This document shows positions 50,325 through 63,559 of a stretch of 64,000 bases of DNA, in pieces. Within the stretch, counting starts at the first letter, position 1. Every line of letters starts with the position of its first letter. Made by a program: the position numbers and the translations under genes. Origin of the DNA: Sphaerimonospora thailandensis (GTDB lineage: Bacteria; Actinomycetota; Actinomycetes; Streptosporangiales; Streptosporangiaceae); contig NZ_BOOG01000017.1 of the NCBI RefSeq assembly GCF_016863115.1, positions 1 to 64,000 of the forward strand. The letters are read 5' to 3'. The notes beneath the pieces were generated by a model that did no database searches, was not told the DNA's origin, and saw only the letters and a list, made by a program, of their open reading frames with translations.

Positions 50325-51215
50325 GTGGCGGAGTGCTTTGCCGTGGTTGATGCCACGGACTGGCTTGTGGAGCTTTTCGAGGCCGGAGGATCGGAGGAGA
50401 AGGTCTGGCTGACTGAGCCGAAGACCGGCAGACGCGCCTTGTTCAAGCCCAACCTGCGGCATGACAACGCGGAGCAGGCAGACCACTGGCCGGAGAAGCT
50501 CGCGTCTGAGTTGGCGGGCCAGATAGGCACACCCGCCGCCAGGATCGACCTCGCTGTTCGGAACGGCCAGCGTGGTTGCCTCTCCTACGATGTCACGCCG
50601 AGTGACTGGGAGTTGCAGCCAGGTTGGGTGCTGCTTACTCATCTGCTCGGTCGGCACGATCCGATGGATAAGAAGCACCAAGGGCACACCCTGACCAACA
50701 TCCGCATCGTCCTCCATGATTACGACCAACCAGGAGGATTCGCCGGCCCCTCGGACATGACCGCGTTCGATGTCTTCGTCGGCTACCTGGTACTCGACGC
50801 GCTGATCGCCAACCGTGACCGGCATCCGGCGAACTGGGCAGTGCTTCGTGGGCCAACCAAAAAAGATCAACAGCTGTCCCCGTCCTTCGATCATGCGACG
50901 AGCCTCGGCTTCAGCCTCACTGACCAGGAACGCATCCGTAGGATGAATCATCAGAGAGAGTGGGAAGCCTTCCTGAAGAAGGGGACCGCACACCGGTTCG
51001 AGGGCTGCCGCCGACTCAGCTTGGTCGACTTCGCCGTACAGGGGTTGAGCCTCCTCCGCGCGGACGCTCGCCAATACTGGCTTGACCAGCTGAGCAGCTA
51101 CAACAAGGATCAGATGGTCGCCCTGGCCGAGTCCATCCCGGAAATGTCGGAGGCGGCGCGTACGTTCGCGGTGGAACTGGTGGACACCAACAGGAGGAGG
51201 TTGCTAGATGCCTAG
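50325..51215 (+). CDS. HipA-like Ser/Thr kinase
   Basis: A 296-residue HipA/PI3-kinase-like fold kinase. Lys41 (RALFKPN) is the likely ATP-anchoring residue, Asp165/Asn170 (NRDRHPANW) the catalytic loop, and SFDHATSLG supplies the metal-binding Asp189. It is shorter than HipA (about 440) and lacks the N-terminal HipA_N domain, which seems to be encoded by the next gene. GTG 50325 is the only good start. Its stop overlaps the HIRAN gene start by 8 nt. Kinase activity and target are not known. Confidence 0.75.
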   Translation: MAECFAVVDATDWLVELFEAGGSEEKVWLTEPKTGRRALFKPNLRHDNAEQADHWPEKLASELAGQIGTPAARIDLAVRNGQRGCLSYDVTPSDWELQPGWVLLTHLLGRHDPMDKKHQGHTLTNIRIVLHDYDQPGGFAGPSDMTAFDVFVGYLVLDALIANRDRHPANWAVLRGPTKKDQQLSPSFDHATSLGFSLTDQERIRRMNHQREWEAFLKKGTAHRFEGCRRLSLVDFAVQGLSLLRADARQYWLDQLSSYNKDQMVALAESIPEMSEAARTFAVELVDTNRRRLLDA

Positions 51216-51966
51216 CTCGACTCGGGCCGTGTCCGCGCCTACAGGGAGCACGCTGACGGCGCCCCGACTGCTGGTGGCGCGGCGAACCCCAGACGGCCTG
51301 ATCACGCCGATCGGTGTCCTCGACCAGCTCACCGGCGGTTACTCCTTCGCCTACCTGCGGCAGGTGCTGGACGTTCCCGCCTTCCGCCCTCTCCTCGGCT
51401 TCGAGGACCTAGAACGTCGCTATGTCTCAACTGAACTGTTCCCGCTGTTCAGTCAGCGTCTGATGGATCCTCGTCGGACCGACTATCAGTGGTATCTCAC
51501 CGTGTTGGGCCTGTCTGAGGGCGCCTCGCCGATGGTCGTCTTGGGCAGGTCAGAGGGCCGCCGTGCCGGAGATGCGATCACACTGGTCGCCGAACCCGAG
51601 GTAGATGCTTCAGGTCGAACCTCAGCGAGTTTCTTCGTGCACGGGCTACGCCACCGGGCCGGAGCCGAGCCGCGCGTTGCCACCCTGCGAAAGGGCGAGC
51701 AGCTCGCTCTGCGCGATGACCTACAAAATCCGGTCAATCCCCGCGCACTGCTGGTGACCCGTAACGCTGAGGAACTTGGATGGATCCCGGATCTGCTCCT
51801 CGACTACGTGCACCGGGTCCGCGAGACAGGCGAAATGACGATTCGGGTCGCGCAGGTTAACGGCGCGGATACCCCGCCTAATCTTCGGCTCAGGGTGCAA
51901 CTCGAGGGCTGCACGCCGGAGGGTTATCTGCCCTTCCACGGTGAGGACTGGGCCACGACCGCCTGA
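51208..51966 (+). CDS. HIRAN-domain protein with HipA_N-like N-terminus
   Basis: A 252-residue protein. Residues about 28-110 resemble the N-terminal subdomain of HipA (DGLITPIGVLDQ, GGYSFAYLRQVLDVPAFRPL); residues 140-230 form a HIRAN domain (LRKGEQLALRDDLQNPVNPR, LGWIPDLLLDYVHRV), a fold known to bind DNA or RNA ends. ATG 51208 lies inside the last codons of the kinase gene (TAG at 51213-51215). The two together could form a split HipA-type toxin or sensor. A truncated copy of its 5' end is at 56311. Confidence 0.75.
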   Translation: MPSSTRAVSAPTGSTLTAPRLLVARRTPDGLITPIGVLDQLTGGYSFAYLRQVLDVPAFRPLLGFEDLERRYVSTELFPLFSQRLMDPRRTDYQWYLTVLGLSEGASPMVVLGRSEGRRAGDAITLVAEPEVDASGRTSASFFVHGLRHRAGAEPRVATLRKGEQLALRDDLQNPVNPRALLVTRNAEELGWIPDLLLDYVHRVRETGEMTIRVAQVNGADTPPNLRLRVQLEGCTPEGYLPFHGEDWATTA

Positions 51967-52307: not shown

Positions 52308-52394
52308 ACCTACCGGCCGTCGCGATGTGCTGACCGCGATGGCCTAAAGGACAATGGGGACGGCCTGCAACCTGACCCGGGGGCCGAGCCTCCC

Positions 52395-53124
52395 GTGGAG
52401 CGGCCCGATCGTGGCGGCCATCCGGAGCTGCGTTTCTCCCTGGCCGGCATGGGCGCTCAAGTTCTCCATGCTCGCCGGGATCGAGGTGCCGGAGGTCCGG
52501 CTCTACCAGCGAGAGGAGTTGGACACCCTACCCTCCGGCGTGTGACCCGGAAGCGAAGAATGGGCTTATGCCGTACGGCGATTCGACCGCGACGATCGAC
52601 GCGGCGCGATCCACATCGAGGACCTCGCGCAGGCGCGTGGCGTCTACCCGAACGAGAAGTACCTCGGGAACTACGAGACGGTGGCAGCGCTCGTCTACCG
52701 CCGCCGCGACGTGGCCTCGCTCCGGGAGTTCGCCCGGCGACTCGCCTTCAACGTGCTCATCTCCAACGGCGACGCGCACCTGAAGAACTGGTCGCTGATC
52801 TACCGCGATCCGCGGGTGCCCGCCCTGTCGCCCGCCTACGACCTGGTCTCCACCGGCGTCTACATGGGCGACGGCGAAACGCTCGGCTTGAAGTTCGCCG
52901 GAACCAAGCGGTTCGACCAGATCACGGTGTGGACTTTCGAACGGCTAGAGCGACGGCTTGGCGCCACCGAGGCCGGGCTGGGTGACGTCGTCGCGGACCT
53001 GGTGGCGCGGGTTCACGAGGCATGGCCCGAGTGCGCGGAACTGCTGAGTGGCACCCCCGACATCCTCAAGGCCGTGAGCGCCACCATCGACGCCCGGAGC
53101 CGTACCCTGCTCCCCACCCAATAG
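52395..53124 (+). pseudogene. hipA pseudogene
   Basis: A degenerate HipA toxin. Upstream pieces give ELRFSLAGM in one frame and LKFSMLAGIEVPEVRLYQRE in the next (a frameshift near 52455); a TGA at 52543-52545 then breaks the main frame before EEWAYAVRRFDRDDRRGAIH. The C-terminal kinase part from about 52561 is intact (LAFNVLISNGDAHLKNWSLI, SPAYDLVSTGVY) but the 5' part with the HipA_N region is missing. Non-functional as toxin. Confidence 0.75.
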
Positions 53125-56220: not shown

Positions 56221-56310
56221 GTCGTACGGCGGAAGCGACGCTTACCAGTTCCGCCGCACGAAGCTGGTCAAGATCGACGCCCCTATGCATCCGGAGAGTC
56301 CGCGTCGGAG

Positions 56311-56584
56311 ATGTCGGAGGCGGCGCGTAGGTTCGCGGTGGAACTGGTGGACACCAGCAGAAGGAGGTTGCCAGGTGCCTAGCTCGGCTCGGGCCGTGTC
56401 CGCGCCTGCGGGGAGCACGCTGACAGCGTCCCGGCTGCTGGTGACGCGGCGAACCCCAGACGGCCTGATCACGCCGATCGGCGTCCTCGACGAAGTCCCC
56501 AGAGGCTTCTCCTTCGCCTACCTGCGGCGGGTGCTGGACGTTCCCGCCTTCCGCCCCCTCCTCGGCTTCGAGGACCCGGAATGA
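56311..56584 (+). pseudogene. Truncated duplicate of the kinase end and HIRAN gene start
   Basis: Positions 56311-56579 repeat 51144-51412 with the same length and no indel, differing by scattered substitutions. It includes the last codons of the HipA-like kinase and the first about 70 codons of the HIRAN gene (HipA_N-like part). The copy ends at a TGA at 56582-56584. The HIRAN domain is absent, so this is a non-functional segmental duplicate. The rest of 56585-56734 has no gene. Confidence 0.85.
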
Positions 56585-57013: not shown

Positions 57014-57438
57014 GCGACCACACCCCGACACCCCTCATCCTCGACACCACCGTCCTGCATGAACTGGCCCGCGGCGAGGTCGGCACCATCGGTCTCATCC
57101 AGGGTTACGACGCCGACGGGCAACCCATGGTCGTGTCCGCCCTGGCGATCACTGCGACGCTCATCGAAGCACGTAACGAGGAAGCCGCCGACGCCATGCA
57201 CGGCCTGGCCGCGATGGAGCACGTCATGGTCGCGGCTCTCAAGGACGCAGAACAGGCCGAGAACCTCGCCCTGGTGGCCGTCGCCACCGGCCTGGACGTT
57301 TGCGAGGCGCACACCGCTGCGATCGCCGACGTCTCGATCTGCCCGATCCTGACGTTCGACGCCGGCCGGTGGAACGAGGCGTCACGATCGCTGGACAACC
57401 ACCTGTTCACAATCGAGGTCACCGACCCCGACCTGTGA
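57010..57438 (+). CDS. PIN-domain toxin, VapC-like
   Basis: A 142-residue PIN-like protein: the first acidic residue is in LILDTTVLHELARG (Asp12), with later acidic positions in EARNEEAADAM and FDAGRWNEASRS. PIN toxins cut tRNA or rRNA. The catalytic set is not fully canonical by eye, so activity is not certain. GTG 57010 overlaps the antitoxin stop (GTGA), which fits coupled expression. Confidence 0.7.
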   Translation: MSDHTPTPLILDTTVLHELARGEVGTIGLIQGYDADGQPMVVSALAITATLIEARNEEAADAMHGLAAMEHVMVAALKDAEQAENLALVAVATGLDVCEAHTAAIADVSICPILTFDAGRWNEASRSLDNHLFTIEVTDPDL

Positions 57439-57860
57439 CAAGGCCCCGGCCCTCATCACCCCTACGGGGACTCGTAGTGAGTGGGCTCGCCAAGGGGATC
57501 GACACCCGCGAGGGCTTGGTGATCAGCCAGTTCTGGCCGGACTCACCGCCCCACCAGCGTAACTTCCCGATGAGAAACGCTGTGATGAGCGGCTACGCCG
57601 CGGCCACGGTCGTCGTGGAGGCTCTCTGGAAGAGCGGGGCACGGATCCAGGCGAGGCTGGCACTGGAGCATGGGCGGCCTGTGGTGATGCCCGATCAACT
57701 ACTTGAGCACAACTGGGCTCGTGACTACGCGAAAAAGCCCGGCGTACATGTGGTCTCAAACCTTCGCGAACTGCTCGATGTCGCGGAAAGATTGATCTCG
57801 GAATTGAACATCGGCCCCGAGTCGCTTCCGGAGACCCCTGCCCTGGTCAGGAGCCGCTGA
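57435..57860 (+). pseudogene. dprA/smf-like fragment with internal deletion
   Basis: The frame runs from a GTG that overlaps the PIN stop to 57860. It reads GLVVSGLAKGIDT then jumps straight to EGLVISQFWPDSPPHQRNFP, MRNAVMSGYAAATVVVEALW: compared with DprA, about 40 residues between the two motifs are missing, together with the N-terminal half. A DprA/SMF-type single-strand DNA binding protein gene, probably defence-associated, reduced to a remnant. The short product may still be made. Confidence 0.65.
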
Positions 57861-58917: not shown

Positions 58918-59012
58918 GAGTTACATTTGCTGCGGTCCTGGTTACATTTCCTCGGATTCCAGTTACGCCTCGCCAGGTTCTGGTTACGTTTCCCCGGGCT
59001 CCGGTTACATTT
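58918..59012. repeat. Five-copy 21-bp phased direct repeat upstream of mcrB
   Basis: GTTAC starts at 58920, 58941, 58962, 58983 and 59004, so the period is exactly 21 bp (about two helical turns). Four of the five continue as GTTACATTT or GTTACGTTT, and the linker is GC-rich. An inverted GTAAC lies near 58908. On both strands the repeats are open but show no sign of a gene. This looks like an iteron-type protein-binding array between vapBC and mcrB. Confidence 0.75.
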
Positions 59013-59211
59013 ATGCTCGGTCATCGCGCAGTTGGCGGAGCTTTGCGGCAAAAGCCCGGTGGAAGTCCATCCGTCCCTGTTCTCGACGCTGCGGGCAAGT
59101 CACCAGGCCGGTGGCCAGAGCCGGCCATCTGTTCAACGGATGCGAGGGCGGCGAAGTCGCTACGGTGATCGTGATGGTGACCTCGGGACCGGAAGGAACG
59201 ATCCACTGGTG

Positions 59212-61254
59212 ATGGCGTCGCGGACGGAACTCACGAGGAAGATGCTGTTCACCGCCGCCCAGGTGCTGGCCGAGCGTCCCGAGGGCGTACCGACCCGCGA
59301 GCTCTGGCTGCTCGTCAGGGATCGGTTACCAGGCCTGGAAGAGGAGTGGAAACCGGGTGGCGTCGCGAGCAACACGCCGGAGATCGCTCTCGGGTACAAG
59401 AGCGGCGGCCTGGTCAAGTCCGGCTGGGTCGTCAAGGCTCAGGGCCGCTGGCGGCTCACCCCGCTCGGCCGAATCGCACTCGGCGAGCACCCCCACGTGT
59501 CGCCGTTCATGGCGGCCGCCCACGCCGCCTATCAGTACTGGGAGCAGCATCGGACCGGGTTCGAGATGGCCAAGCAGCTGCTGGAAGCCGTACCGGAGGG
59601 AAGCTGGGTGGCGGCGCGCGATCTCGCGGTGGAGACCGGCCTGGACGAGATGCGCCTTGTGCAGTGGCTGCAGGGTGAGCGTCCCGAGGGATGGCACCGG
59701 GTGCTCGACGGGGACGGTGGTGTGCCGGACGCCGTGCGCGCTGACGAGGAACTCCAGGAGCGCTGGTATCGGCTCCTCGAAAAGGATGGTCTGTCCTTCG
59801 TGACCGGCCGGGCCTCGTTGACGCGCCGGATCTCAGGCGCGGACCTACGGCAGCTCATGCTTGACAACCCGGACAGTCGGACCCGGAGGGCGTGGCTGGT
59901 GCGTGGACTCGGGATGTACGGCGGGAGCCTGCTGCGCGACTGGCTCACCGAGGGATTCTGCTCGCTGCCCGCGTCGAAGTTGCCGGAGCTGCCGCCCGGC
60001 TCGCCGCTGGACGCCATCCGGGCGGCCGTGGAAGAGGACTACGCCCACGGGTCGTTCAACGAGAAGCTGAAGAAGACCAACGAGTTCTACGCGTTCCTCA
60101 CCCGGATGCGCGACGGCGACCTGGTGCTCTGCAACGACGGCGGGAAGATCTATATCGGCCGTCTCCGCGGTGAGCCGGCCTTCCGTGCCAGCGTTGAGAA
60201 CCGGGCGAACCTGCAGCGGCCGGTCAGCTGGCTGAACGGCGACTCGCCGCTCGACTTCGACGACCTACCGGACGAGATGTCCGCCAAGCTGGCCACCCAG
60301 CACGACGTGCTCGACCTCACCGAGTTCATCGACGACCTGGAGCGGCTCGTCGGGCCGCAGCCGGCGCCGGCCAGGGAGTTCACGCTTCCGGACGTCATGC
60401 CGGAGCTGGCCGACGAACTGCTGGTCGACCAGGAGTGGCTGCAGGAGTGCGTTTGCCTGCTCCGGGATCGGCCGCAGCTCATCCTGTACGGCCCGCCGGG
60501 GACGGGCAAGACGTACATCGCGCAGCATCTCGCCCAGCACCTCGCGGGCGGCAAGCCACAGAACGTGAAACTTGTTCAGTTTCACCCCGCGTACTCCTAC
60601 GAGGACTTCTTCGAGGGCTTTCGTCCGGTCCAGACGCCGGATGAGCGAGGGGTGGTGTTCAAGCCGCTGCCCGGCCCGCTGCTGCGGCTGGTGGACGCCG
60701 CCCGGCAACGCCCGGAGGAGCCGTTCGTCCTCATCATCGACGAGATCAACCGAGGTAACATCGCCAAGATCTTCGGCGAGCTGTACTTCCTGTTGGAGTA
60801 CCGGAAGAAGGCCATCGACCTGCTGTACTCCTCGGCCGACGAATCCGGCACCCCGTTCACACTGCCGGAGAACCTGGTCATCATCGGCACCATGAACACG
60901 GCCGACCGGTCGATCGCCCTGGTCGACGCAGCGATGCGGCGACGGTTCGCCTTCGTGGAACTGCACCCCGAGGAGAAACCCACCTCGGACATCCTGCACC
61001 GCTGGCTTGTCAGCCGCGAGCTTCCCATCGAGGCGGCCCGCCTGCTTGAGGAGCTGAACGCCCGGATCGAGGACCGCGACTTCAAGATCGGCCCGTCGTA
61101 CCTGATGCGCCCGGGGATCTACCGCGACGCGAAGGGGTTCGACCGGGTCTGGCGCACGCAGATCCTGCCGCTGCTCGAAGAGCACCACTACGGCGACGGC
61201 ATCGACGTGGCCGAGCGGTACGGACTGGAGACGCTGCGGCGAACGCTCTCATGA
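59212..61254 (+). CDS. mcrB: McrB-type AAA GTPase, restriction subunit
   Basis: A 680-residue protein with an N-terminal part of about 400 residues containing a winged-helix-like domain (ELTRKMLFTAAQVLAERPEG) and DNA-reading elements, then an AAA+ NTPase of the McrB type: Walker A GPPGTGKT (Gly427-Thr434), Walker B IIDEINRGNIAKIF (Asp510), and NTADRSIALVDAAMRRRF (from 562) as sensor/arginine motif. It moves DNA for cleavage by McrC. ATG 59212 is chosen (GGAAGG 15 nt upstream); a 12-codon frame (ATG 59174) stops across this ATG. The frame continues upstream through repeat DNA without support. Confidence 0.9.
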   Translation: MASRTELTRKMLFTAAQVLAERPEGVPTRELWLLVRDRLPGLEEEWKPGGVASNTPEIALGYKSGGLVKSGWVVKAQGRWRLTPLGRIALGEHPHVSPFMAAAHAAYQYWEQHRTGFEMAKQLLEAVPEGSWVAARDLAVETGLDEMRLVQWLQGERPEGWHRVLDGDGGVPDAVRADEELQERWYRLLEKDGLSFVTGRASLTRRISGADLRQLMLDNPDSRTRRAWLVRGLGMYGGSLLRDWLTEGFCSLPASKLPELPPGSPLDAIRAAVEEDYAHGSFNEKLKKTNEFYAFLTRMRDGDLVLCNDGGKIYIGRLRGEPAFRASVENRANLQRPVSWLNGDSPLDFDDLPDEMSAKLATQHDVLDLTEFIDDLERLVGPQPAPAREFTLPDVMPELADELLVDQEWLQECVCLLRDRPQLILYGPPGTGKTYIAQHLAQHLAGGKPQNVKLVQFHPAYSYEDFFEGFRPVQTPDERGVVFKPLPGPLLRLVDAARQRPEEPFVLIIDEINRGNIAKIFGELYFLLEYRKKAIDLLYSSADESGTPFTLPENLVIIGTMNTADRSIALVDAAMRRRFAFVELHPEEKPTSDILHRWLVSRELPIEAARLLEELNARIEDRDFKIGPSYLMRPGIYRDAKGFDRVWRTQILPLLEEHHYGDGIDVAERYGLETLRRTLS

Positions 61255-62486
61255 CATCCCCGGTCCCCGTCGTCGCGCTTGTCGAGGGCGCTCCGCCGCG
61301 TGAGTTCGCGCTCACGGCCGAACAGGCGGCCACCCTTGCCGCGGCGAAGGCCGTACAGGTGGCGCCCGGGCCGCGCGCCGGGCTGTGGTGGATCCGCGAC
61401 AACGGCTACGTAGGGGCCGCGGCGATCGGCGGCGTCCAGGTCAGCATCAGGCCGAAGACGCCGATCGACCGGCTGCTCTTCCTCCTCGGCTACAGCCGGT
61501 CCCTGCGGGGCTGGCGGCAGGAGGAGGTCCACGCCGGTGAACATCGGGACCTGCTGCCCGCGCTCGCGCATGCCTTCGCTCGGGGCGCCCGACGCGCACT
61601 GGACCGGGGCATGCTGCAGGGGTACCGCGAGATCGAGGAGTCGGCCCAGGTGGTCCGGGGGCGGATCCGGGAGGCCGAACAGATCAGGCGCAGGTACGGC
61701 CTGCCGTTGCCGATGGAGGTCCGCTATGACGAGTTCACCGTGGACATCGCGGAGAACCGGCTGCTCCTGGCGGCCACGACCCGGCTGCTGTGCCTGCCAG
61801 GCCTCGCCGAACCCACCCGGAAGACGCTGCGGCACGTGCTGGCGCGTCTCGCGGGCGTCTCGCCCCTGGTGCGCGGAGCGCCGCTCCCGACATGGCACGC
61901 GAACCGGCTGAACATCCGCTACCACACGGCGCTGCGGCTCGCCGAGCTCGTGCTGCGCGGGCGCTCGTACGAACTGGACGACGGCACGGCGGTGCGGGTG
62001 GACGGCCTGCTCTTCGAGATGTGGCGGGTCTTCGAGGACTTCGTCACCGTGGCGCTGTCGGAGGCCTTCCAGCCGTACGGCGGGCGGAGCAGCCCGCAGG
62101 ACCGGCTCCACCACCTCGACGAGGATCGGCGGGTGGCGCTGCGGCCCGATCTGGTCCGCTATGCGGTCGGACCCGGCGGGATCGAACAGCCCGCCGCCGT
62201 GGTGGACGCCAAGTACAAGATTTCTGCCGGCCCGGACGGACACAACGGCGATCTCTACCAAATGCTCGCCTACTGCACCGTGCTCGGCCTCTCATGCGGC
62301 CATCTCGTGTACGCCAAGGGCGACGCCGAGCCGTACCGGCACGTGGTGCGCCGGGCCGGTATCGAGATCAGCCGGCATGCCCTCGACCTGACCCTGCCCC
62401 CGACTGAGCTGCTCGCCGCCGTAGCGGAGCTGGCGGCGAACATCACCCGGCACGATGCCGAGCTTGTGGCCGCTCGCTCTCGGTGA
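61251..62486 (+). CDS. mcrC: McrC-type nuclease subunit
   Basis: A 411-residue McrC protein. The N-terminal part binds the McrB ring; the C-terminal PD-(D/E)xK nuclease has Asp300 (LRPDLV), Asp319 and Lys321 (VVDAKYKI), intact. ATG 61251 overlaps the mcrB stop (ATGA), so both subunits are coupled. Together they would cut DNA that carries modified bases. Confidence 0.92.
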   Translation: MTSPVPVVALVEGAPPREFALTAEQAATLAAAKAVQVAPGPRAGLWWIRDNGYVGAAAIGGVQVSIRPKTPIDRLLFLLGYSRSLRGWRQEEVHAGEHRDLLPALAHAFARGARRALDRGMLQGYREIEESAQVVRGRIREAEQIRRRYGLPLPMEVRYDEFTVDIAENRLLLAATTRLLCLPGLAEPTRKTLRHVLARLAGVSPLVRGAPLPTWHANRLNIRYHTALRLAELVLRGRSYELDDGTAVRVDGLLFEMWRVFEDFVTVALSEAFQPYGGRSSPQDRLHHLDEDRRVALRPDLVRYAVGPGGIEQPAAVVDAKYKISAGPDGHNGDLYQMLAYCTVLGLSCGHLVYAKGDAEPYRHVVRRAGIEISRHALDLTLPPTELLAAVAELAANITRHDAELVAARSR

Positions 62487-62626
62487 GCGCGCGTAGCTCA
62501 GAAGACCCCCCAACCAGGCGATTTGTCCGCCCGAGGAGGCGACATCACACTCTGCCACCCAGGAGTCCTCCGCTCCTATGTACGAACCTCTGGCGAGATT
62601 GATCATGTGTGGGCACAATTGCCGGT

Positions 62627-63559
62627 GTGAAGGCATACGTCGGGGTGACTGACGCAGGTTGGTACCGATTTCTGGCCGCGCGCCCGGATCTCACCGAGGT
62701 GAACTTCTGGCGGCCATCGAGCGGCCGGGAGTTTCGGGCGATCGACCACGGCGAGCCGTTCTTCTTCAAGACCCATCATCCGCACAACCGCGTGGTCGGC
62801 GGCGGCTTCTTCAGCGGCTTCGCGCCTCTCCCCGTGTCTGAGGCGTGGGAGCTCTTCGGCCAGGGCAACGGCGCCGCAAGCCTGGTCGAAATGCGGCAAC
62901 GGGTGGGAAAGTACCGCACGCAGCCAATGGCTCTCGGCGAGGACCCGGTCATCGGCTGCGTCATCATCCGTGATGTCTTCTTCTTTCCGGACGACCGAAT
63001 CGCCGGGCCGCCGCCGGACTTCGCGCCCAACATCGTGCAGGGCAAGAGCTACGACCTGGCCAGTCACCCGGCCGCCGGCTACTTCCACGATCTGCTCGGC
63101 CGGATCGGAATCGGCGTGGAACTCGACCTGTCCGAGCCGTGGCACCGCGACGGGCCCGTCTTCGGCGACCCGCGCCTGGCCCCGCGCAGGCTCGGCCAGC
63201 AGGCGTTCCAGGCCGTGGTCCTGCACGCCTACGAGCGGCGCTGCGCGATCACGGGCGACCGGATCCGGCCGGTGCTGCAGGCGGCCCACATCCGCCCGGT
63301 CGCGGATGGCGGCGAGCACCGTCTGGACAACGGGCTGCTGCTCCGCTCGGATGTGCACACGTTATTCGACCGCGGCTACCTGGCCGTCGATCCCAGGCAT
63401 CGGTTGGTGGTCAGCCCGCGGCTGCGCGAGGAGTTCGGCAACGGCGAGGAGTTCTACCGCCGGGCCGGACAGGAGATCAACGTTCCGGACCGACCACGCG
63501 ACCGGCCTGATCGTGAGGCCCTCGAATGGCATCTCGATGAGGTGTTCCTCAGGAGTTAA
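62627..63559 (+). CDS. HNH endonuclease with N-terminal modified-base reader-like domain
   Basis: A 310-residue protein. N-terminal about 170 residues ([40 protein letters not shown]) look like a separate PUA/EVE-like or restriction-associated domain; the C-terminal HNH has [19 protein letters not shown] (His221), LDNGLLL (Asn235), and [11 protein letters not shown] (His244). It follows mcrC by 140 nt on the same strand. GTG 62627 is my choice; GTG 62609 is open. An accessory nuclease for the McrBC system is a reasonable guess. Confidence 0.85.

What the first reader, a model, noticed from the sequence alone, without database searches (positions are those of the whole stretch)
50325..51966. 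Split HipA module: kinase plus HIRAN-domain gene
A short HipA-like kinase lacking HipA_N overlaps by 8 nt a second gene whose N-terminus resembles HipA_N and whose C-terminus is a HIRAN domain. No HipB-type HTH gene is adjacent. HipA kinases phosphorylate aminoacyl-tRNA synthetases in classical TA systems, and HIRAN domains sense nucleic-acid ends. A nucleic-acid-sensing, split HipA toxin would be a new arrangement, and it sits in a defence island.
Basis: partly seen in the sequence, partly recalled or inferred. Interest (0 to 1): 0.62.

Follow-up and report, generated by a model that had tools for sequence, protein, structure and literature searches.

The report
Known hipIN kinase–HIRAN antitoxin pair
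Two overlapping genes encode a small protein kinase and a partner that probably holds it in check and carries a DNA-end-binding type of domain; this two-gene kit was described in 2021 as hipIN, so it is a further member, but some relatives sit inside antiviral gene clusters and phages, which makes it worth testing.

Summary
A 296-aa HipA-like kinase (50325-51215) overlaps by 8 nt a 252-aa protein (51208-51966) built of a HipS/HipA-N-like and a HIRAN domain; a predicted structure supports both domains. It is not a new arrangement: it is a hipIN module (HipI kinase plus HipN) as defined by Gerdes et al. 2021, who also published the idea that HIRAN senses phage DNA ends. PADLOC lists both proteins as candidate system PDC-M03. 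The pair is real: the kinase gene lies directly upstream in 26 of 28 related loci, overlapping in 20 of 26; six catalytic residues are invariant in 23 of 23. Some relatives sit inside a BREX operon, inside a type I restriction operon, between PglX and PglW, or beside integrases of two phage types, which supports an anti-phage role; but 15 of 24 scanned loci showed no defence-type neighbour. In actinobacterial HipN the HIRAN pocket is altered, not simply decayed: HLTF's Arg71 and Asn91 positions stay (26/27, 27/27), Asp94 becomes Asn (26/27), Tyr93 is mostly lost (2/27 kept). HLTF-like 3'-end sensing should not be assumed. Most likely a kinase toxin restrained by HipN and released during infection. 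New member of a known kind.

The parts
50325..51215 (+). hipI: HipA-like core kinase, 296 aa, GTG start; K41 (nucleotide-binding Lys), D165-R166-H167 and N170 (catalytic loop), D189 (metal-binding), S23 beside the Gly-rich region (residue roles inferred from HipA-family kinases, recalled)
   Evidence: HipA_C E 2.2e-9; PDC-M03A E 1.2e-108; profile match to CtkA E 2.4e-12; K41, D165, R166, H167, N170, D189 each 23 of 23 actinobacterial kinases
51208..51966 (+). hipN: putative antitoxin, HipS-like domain plus HIRAN domain, 252 aa
   Evidence: PDC-M03B E 5e-77; AF2 model and fold comparison
51208..51215 (+). 8-nt overlap of hipI end and hipN start, likely translational coupling (inferred)
   Evidence: sequence; an 8-nt overlap also in L044, L045, L046 and L048, overlaps of 4-26 nt in 20 of 26 loci with a kinase
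51259..51597 (+). HipS / HipA N-subdomain-1-like domain (HipN residues 18-130)
   Evidence: Z 12.9 to 7vkb_B, 12.7 to HipS 8ezr_A
51604..51951 (+). HIRAN domain (HipN residues 133-248)
   Evidence: Z 12.8 to 3k2y_D, 9.9 to HLTF 5bnh_A; Pfam HIRAN below cut-off
51649..51738 (+). HIRAN pocket positions: R148 (=HLTF R71), H149 (=Y72), Q173 (=N90), N174 (=N91), V176 (=Y93), N177 (=D94)
   Evidence: HMMER alignment to HLTF for N90-D94; R71/Y72 placed by eye; counts
56296..56581 (+). remnant of a second hipIN: end of a kinase gene plus the first 69 codons of a second hipN
   Evidence: 286-nt repeat, 90% identical to 51129-51414; 83% aa identity over HipN residues 1-69

Best explanation
A probably horizontally acquired hipIN module acting as a kinase toxin under the control of its HIRAN-bearing partner. 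HipI is a small HipA/CtkA-fold Ser/Thr kinase without the lid domain (shown by sequence, and by the model of a relative). HipN supplies that lid in trans as a HipS-like domain (predicted fold) and holds the kinase inactive in a co-translated complex (inferred from HipST and HipA). [quoted passage not shown] In this actinobacterial branch the pocket keeps the positions of HLTF R71 and N91 but has Asn for D94 and mostly lacks Y93, so its ligand may differ from the single-stranded end bound by human HLTF.
For: Pair conserved: kinase ORF directly upstream in 26 of 28 genome-contig loci (L047 and L068 broken, L067 short); 7 of 8 plasmid records with hipN also have the kinase, directly adjacent in 6 (in L080 an IS110 gene lies between); adjacent in Vibrio and Clostridioides phages; fused in an E. 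coli P2-type phage, where Pfam HIRAN and HipA N-terminal domains pass their cut-offs. Overlapping gene ends in 20 of 26. K41, D165, R166, H167, N170, D189 in 23 of 23 and in 4 of 4 non-actinobacterial kinases. HipS and HIRAN folds of HipN. Anti-phage context: between brxD and brxHI (L059), between PglX and PglW (L050, L068), between hsdS and hsdM (L079), beside JetD/JetC (L060), HmaC (L074) and PDC-M55C (L044); next to the integrase in a PM2-like Vibrio phage and in phage phiCDKH02. Patchy: strong matches in 6 of 296 other genomes of the order; lower GC (pair 0.631, window 1-46000 0.704). Analogies: HipS inhibits HipT directly (PMC10627512, passages); DS-6/HipAD, a HipA-type kinase with another partner, defends E. 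coli and needs a predicted catalytic residue (PMC13092281, passages).
Against: No experiment on hipIN was found (searches; open-licence library only). No Trp is invariant in the HipS-like domain; the commonest, at column 25, is in 21 of 27 and absent from the window, so the Trp65 inhibition of HipBST is not evident here (the Trp65 position itself was not mapped). The model of an artificial kinase-HipN chain has pTM 0.61, so docking is not shown. Ser/Thr after G22 in only 11 of 23 kinases. Changed HIRAN pocket; in HLTF only the N90/N91 double mutant lost all function, and N90 is kept in only 2 of 27. 15 of 24 genome-contig loci whose flanks were scanned gave no PADLOC match, three gave only weak ones and one a GlgB-type match; five loci have metabolic neighbours. 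No hipN relative was confirmed in viral contigs.
Confidence: 0.55

Rival explanations
1. An ordinary toxin-antitoxin module that stabilises mobile DNA: HIRAN binds DNA only for autoregulation or co-localisation, and there is no specific phage trigger.
For: Sits among other TA genes (PemK-like, PIN and RHH), on plasmids and in a GC-atypical stretch; a second decayed copy lies nearby. 15 of 24 scanned relatives have no PADLOC-matching neighbour.
Against: Nesting in BREX and type I RM operons and a position next to phage integrases is more specific than plasmid stabilisation needs.
Confidence: 0.2
2. HipN is not an antitoxin but the targeting or activating subunit: HIRAN brings the kinase to DNA ends or stalled forks, where HipI phosphorylates repair, replication or phage proteins.
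For: HIRAN of HLTF binds DNA (PMC4666394, section 16). The kinase of relative L055 is structurally nearer to CtkA (Z 27.2) than to HipT (18.7) or HipA (18.1). No invariant HipS-type Trp.
Against: The partner has a HipS-type lid fold (Z 12.5-12.9), and HipS is an antitoxin in HipBST (PMC10627512, passages).
Confidence: 0.15
3. The copy in this window is a decaying passenger without function.
For: Surrounded by remnants: second hipN fragment (56296-56581), truncated HipA_C gene (52681-53124), helicase and DprA fragments.
Against: Both genes are open over full length, catalytic residues and the overlap are intact, and the kinase keeps 61-69% identity to five relatives of the family, HipN 60-68% to six.
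Confidence: 0.1

Closest known systems
hipIN (HipI kinase, HipN HipS-HIRAN putative antitoxin; Gerdes, Baerentsen, Brodersen 2021, PMC8262856: abstract, passages, section 3 parts 1-2 of 3 and section 15 seen)
   Same: Short kinase without N-subdomain 1 followed by a HipS-like + HIRAN gene, no HTH gene; reported in Actinobacteria; same proposed function
   Different: No difference in architecture seen. The paper says that actinobacterial HipN lack DNA-binding motifs; here the R71 and N91 positions are kept and Asn stands at D94
PADLOC PDC-M03 (phage defence candidate)
   Same: Both proteins match (E 1.2e-108 and 5e-77)
   Different: None seen; candidate only, no paper holding this name found
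HipL (fused kinase-HipS-HIRAN)
   Same: Same three domains in the same order; an example sits in an E. coli P2-type phage
   Different: One polypeptide there, two overlapping genes here
hipBST (HipB, HipS, HipT)
   Same: Split HipA: core kinase with the lid domain as a separate protein
   Different: HipS upstream of HipT there, kinase first here; HipB there, none here; HIRAN here and no invariant Trp
DS-6 / HipAD (PMC13092281, passages)
   Same: HipA-type kinase plus a partner unlike HipB
   Different: Partner has DUF3037/DUF1829 there, HipS+HIRAN here; shown to defend there, untested here
CtkA (3akj, 3akk, 3akl)
   Same: Only solved chain matched by the kinase profile at E<=0.01 (E 2.4e-12); best fold match (Z 27.2, relative L055)
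   Different: I know of no partner gene for CtkA (recalled, not tested)

Membership tests
hipIN (Gerdes 2021) | Short core kinase (279-321 aa for the small families), lacking N-subdomain 1 | tested here: met
   296 aa, HipA_C only
hipIN (Gerdes 2021) | Hip core kinase motifs intact | tested here: met
   K41, D165, H167, N170, D189 present and 23 of 23 conserved; Gly-rich region judged by alignment only (G22 in 22 of 23, one gap)
hipIN (Gerdes 2021) | Downstream partner with N-terminal HipS-like domain | tested here: met
   Residues 18-130, Z 12.7 to HipS 8ezr_A on a predicted model; by sequence only E 0.22-0.57
hipIN (Gerdes 2021) | Partner with C-terminal HIRAN domain | tested here: met
   Residues 133-248, Z 12.8 and 9.9 on a predicted model; Pfam HIRAN 17.1 bits, under its 24.7 cut-off
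[quoted passage not shown]
   no tree built
hipIN (Gerdes 2021) | HipN neutralises HipI (proposed, untested in the source) | not testable with these tools
   needs experiment
PADLOC PDC-M03 | Matches to both A and B models in adjacent genes | tested here: met
hipBST | HipB HTH gene and separate HipS upstream of HipT | tested here: not met
   order kinase then partner, no adjacent HTH family
hipBA | Adjacent HipB HTH antitoxin and full-length HipA | tested here: not met
HipL | Single fused protein | tested here: not met
   two frames with 8-nt overlap
DS-6 / HipAD | Partner with DUF3037 and DUF1829 | tested here: inconclusive
   no such family listed at E<=1 by Pfam; HipS and HIRAN folds instead
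HIRAN DNA-end binders (HLTF type) | Pocket Tyr72 and Tyr93 (paper) and Asp94 (role recalled) | tested here: not met
   H149, V176, N177 in the window; Y72 kept in 3 of 27, Y93 in 2 of 27, D94 in 0 of 27
HIRAN DNA-end binders (HLTF type) | Asn90/Asn91 pair (double mutant inactive in HLTF, PMC4666394) | tested here: inconclusive
   N91 position Asn in 27 of 27; N90 position Asn in 2 of 27, Gln in the window

The most novel reading that the evidence does not exclude
HipIN is a guard kinase that has been inserted more than once into BREX, Pgl and type I restriction clusters: when those systems cut or fail against phage DNA, HIRAN binds the resulting short nucleic-acid product (a dinucleotide-sized ligand, as its pocket holds in human HLTF) and releases the kinase. 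The deoxydinucleotide-degrading diDNase genes found beside some hipIN pairs would be the off switch that clears the signal. In the actinobacterial branch the Asn-for-Asp pocket would recognise a differently finished end, for example one with a 3'-phosphate.
Probability: 0.15. Interest if true: 0.8.

Novelty: new member of a known kind. Interest (0 to 1): 0.38.

Why it matters
The module itself is known, but I found no published test of it. The contexts found here (inside a BREX and an RM operon, beside integrases of two phage types) and the altered HIRAN pocket turn a general 2021 hypothesis into specific tests: does hipIN back up BREX or restriction, and is its trigger a DNA end or a very short oligonucleotide? 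If a HIRAN domain were shown to sense oligonucleotides and switch on a kinase, it would be a new kind of infection sensor in bacteria.

Tried and rejected
diDNase as part of this locus: not found. The diDNase-like protein of L078 (Pfam DNA_pol_A_exo1) matches, among the window and the loci then held, only L078 and L057; in the window's own genome its only match is on another contig (C15, E 1.3e-6). I first searched RNase_T (PF00929) in the own genome and in 15 relatives' genomes and saw none close to hipN, but one search shows that this is not the family of the L078 gene, so those two searches say little. The name diDNase for L078 rests on the statement in PMC11706625 that the Nocardiopsis flavescens NA01583 plasmid carries one, not on an assay.

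Link between HIRAN residues and diDNase: not supported; L078 has Asp at the D94 position but L057 has Asn. Tyr72 to His is not special to Actinobacteria: Vibrio, Clostridioides and Nostoc HipN have His too, and Vibrio lacks the Arg of R71.

E. coli P2-type HipL with an exonuclease gene 9 nt upstream: 61 of 5426 genomes, all at least 99% identical in a search that sees only near matches, so I count it as one event. That exonuclease is of another family (Rv2179c-like). P0006 had no other relative in phages or plasmids at E<=1e-10.

Docking of kinase and HipN: an artificial L055 chain gave pLDDT 90.6 but pTM 0.61, so I draw nothing from the arrangement. HMMER matches to haemoglobin, peptide deformylase and the like are taken as chance. 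The sigma-70 scan found no promoter, which says little for an actinobacterium. The viral structure search gave kinase-like or HIRAN-like partial matches, none read as a HipIN.

Row choices: A4 holds the window plus 26 of 28 genome-contig loci (L068 broken and L069 partial left out). Kinase counts use the window plus 22 of 26 (L047, L054, L067, L068 left out: broken or cut). Flank scan: 46 genes from 24 of 28 loci (E limits 1e-8, 1e-8, 1e-10, 1e-6, 1e-6); L052, L058, L062, L071 not scanned; genes called by a simple GC-frame script and chosen by size and closeness, with no control set, so no enrichment is claimed.

Full report
What is there. The GTG start agrees with close relatives, whose kinases begin at the same place with ATG. 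The first protein is a HipA_C kinase (37.8 bits, cut-off 30.5). The second matches Pfam HIRAN only below its cut-off (17.1 against 24.7 bits), so I modelled it from 27 sequences: mean pLDDT 91.3, pTM 0.85. By VIA-align residues 18-130 match 7vkb_B (a 102-residue chain of a bacterial kinase complex, Z 12.9), HipS of Legionella (8ezr_A, 12.7), a 101-residue chain of E. coli HipBST (7ab3_E, 12.5) and the HipA N-terminal part (2wiu_C, 11.4). Residues 133-248 match HIRAN of lp_0118 (12.8) and of human HLTF (9.9). Foldseek's own list shows the HIRAN part only among its 50 rows.

Is it a unit? A scan of one genome per species with the HipN profile gave 28 loci, named actinobacteria or MAGs by title. 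In 26 of 28 a kinase ORF lies directly upstream; L069 and L071 lack it, L047 and L068 are broken and L067 is short. In 20 of 26 a hipN start lies 4-26 nt inside the kinase gene, with the same 8-nt overlap in L044, L045, L046 and L048; the other six are L047, L052, L055, L058, L066 and L068 (starts chosen by me). Clustering ORFs of the 28 loci and the window gave no other gene shared by three or more loci, apart from frames overlapping the pair and a dehydrogenase-type ORF in three loci and the window. Kinase residues K41, D165, R166, H167, N170 and D189 are invariant in 23 of 23. So this is a conserved, probably co-translated pair with an active-looking kinase.

What it is. This is hipIN. Gerdes et al. 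2021 (PMC8262856; abstract, passages, section 3 parts 1-2 of 3, section 15) define HipI as a short kinase family and HipN as a HipS-like plus HIRAN putative antitoxin, and suggest that HIRAN recognises phage DNA ends and activates the kinase for abortive infection. PADLOC already holds both proteins as PDC-M03A and B (E 1.2e-108 and 5e-77). The claim of a new arrangement therefore falls. My search for at least two of the names hipIN, HipN, HipI kinase, HipL kinase, HipL found only that paper; HIRAN domain with phage defense and kinase found three. One of these, PMC11706625 (passages and section 27), reports a third of deoxydinucleotide nuclease genes next to HipA and HIRAN genes and type I restriction components near some of them, so part of the restriction link is in print. 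I found no experimental test of hipIN in those searches or (25 of 791 papers listed; 15 of 353 listed); nor a report of hipIN inside BREX. Supplements and subscription papers were not seen.

The kinase. By profile the only solved relative at E<=0.01 is CtkA (E 2.4e-12), and the kinase part of the model of relative L055 is nearer to CtkA (Z 27.2) than to HipT (18.7) or HipA (18.1). A Ser or Thr follows G22 in 11 of 23 kinases (the window has Ser), so autophosphorylation control is possible here but not general.

The partner. HipS blocks HipT by inserting Trp65 (PMC10627512, passages). [quoted passage not shown] the commonest (column 25) is in 21 of 27 and not in the window, so if HipN blocks HipI it probably does so differently. 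The HLTF pocket holds one dinucleotide between Y72 and Y93, and only the N90/N91 double mutant lost all function (PMC4666394, section 16). In 27 actinobacterial HipN (window included) the R71 position is Arg in 26, N91 is Asn in 27, N90 is Asn in 2, Y72 is His in 24 and Tyr in 3, Y93 is Tyr in 2, and D94 is Asn in 26 and Asp in 0. HipN or HipL from Vibrio, Clostridioides, two cyanobacterial plasmids, E. coli phage 899 and the Nocardiopsis plasmid have Asp there; His at Y72 is not special to Actinobacteria, and Vibrio lacks the Arg. Gerdes et al. say that actinobacterial HipN lack the DNA-binding motifs; the fixed Asn and the kept Arg and Asn look like conserved replacement more than decay. The N90-D94 alignment comes from the HMMER match; R71/Y72 I placed by eye, and the identity of R71 and the role of D94 are recalled.

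Context elsewhere. L059: brxD, hipI, hipN, brxHI follow one another on one strand, hipI starting 7 nt after the brxD stop. L050 and L068: hipIN between PglX and PglW on the opposite strand, the L068 pair itself broken. L079 (Rhodococcus plasmid): a type I restriction gene, hsdS, hipI, hipN, hsdM on one strand. L060: JetD and JetC beside it. L044: PDC-M55C. L074 (Nostoc plasmid): HmaC. Weak matches only: L051, L065, L067; L057 has GlgB-type matches, not counted. Against this, 15 of 24 scanned loci gave no match, and L045, L048, L055, L061 and L063 have metabolic neighbours. In phages, hipIN lies next to the integrase in Vibrio phage 10N.222.46.E12_PE001, which carries a PM2-type capsid gene, and in Clostridioides phage phiCDKH02. 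Of plasmid records 7 of 8 with hipN also have the kinase, 6 directly adjacent; Oscillatoria has no kinase match at E<=1e-5. A fused HipL lies in the P2-type phage 899 between replication and portal genes and in 61 of 5426 E. coli genomes, all at least 99% identical. The viral-contig scan confirmed none.

Context here. The window stretch 46.0-58.6 kb has GC 0.661 against 0.704 before it and 0.680 after 58.9 kb, and the pair 0.631. Around it are a PemK-like toxin, PIN and RHH genes, an AAA_5 protein and an HNH nuclease with restriction-type PADLOC matches, a helicase fragment with weak Druantia matches, a HipA_C remnant and a fragment of a second hipIN. Calling this a TA and defence-like island is fair, though it is partly decayed. 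Six of 296 other genomes searched in the order have a strong HipN match.

Verdict. Observation confirmed, interpretation partly supported, novelty low for the module itself. Its value lies in the testable context and pocket findings.

Noticed in passing
52681-53124 (with 52354-52680): Remnant of a canonical HipA: HipA_C profile positions 113-213 (E 8.3e-21); the N-terminal part is not in this frame. Just downstream of hipIN.
   Followed up: partly
56296-56581: Fragment of a second, diverged hipIN (90% DNA identity to 51129-51414).
   Followed up: partly
L059:332-5988: hipIN lies between brxD and brxHI of a BREX gene run.
   Followed up: partly
L079:1-7209: hipIN lies between hsdS and hsdM of a type I restriction operon on a Rhodococcus plasmid.
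   Followed up: partly
L050:909-10964; L068:1185-11977: hipIN between PglX and PglW, opposite strand; broken in L068.
   Followed up: partly
L072:11590-14431; L075:4953-7751: hipIN next to the integrase in a PM2-like Vibrio phage and a Clostridioides phage.
   Followed up: partly
L076:7456-9660; L082:9001-11205: Fused HipL 9 nt after an Rv2179c-like 3'-5' exonuclease gene (L082) in P2-type prophages; near-identical DNA in 61 of 5426 E. coli genomes.
   Followed up: partly
L078:5723-6340; L057:6780-7367: diDNase-like (DNA_pol_A_exo1) genes convergent with hipN; among the loci held at that call only these two.
   Followed up: partly
57345-57857: Truncated DprA-like gene: DNA_processg_A profile positions 127-192 of 212.
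   Followed up: no
58927-63559: AAA_5 protein, a following gene without PADLOC match, and an HNH nuclease with type II restriction matches: possible restriction cluster.
   Followed up: no
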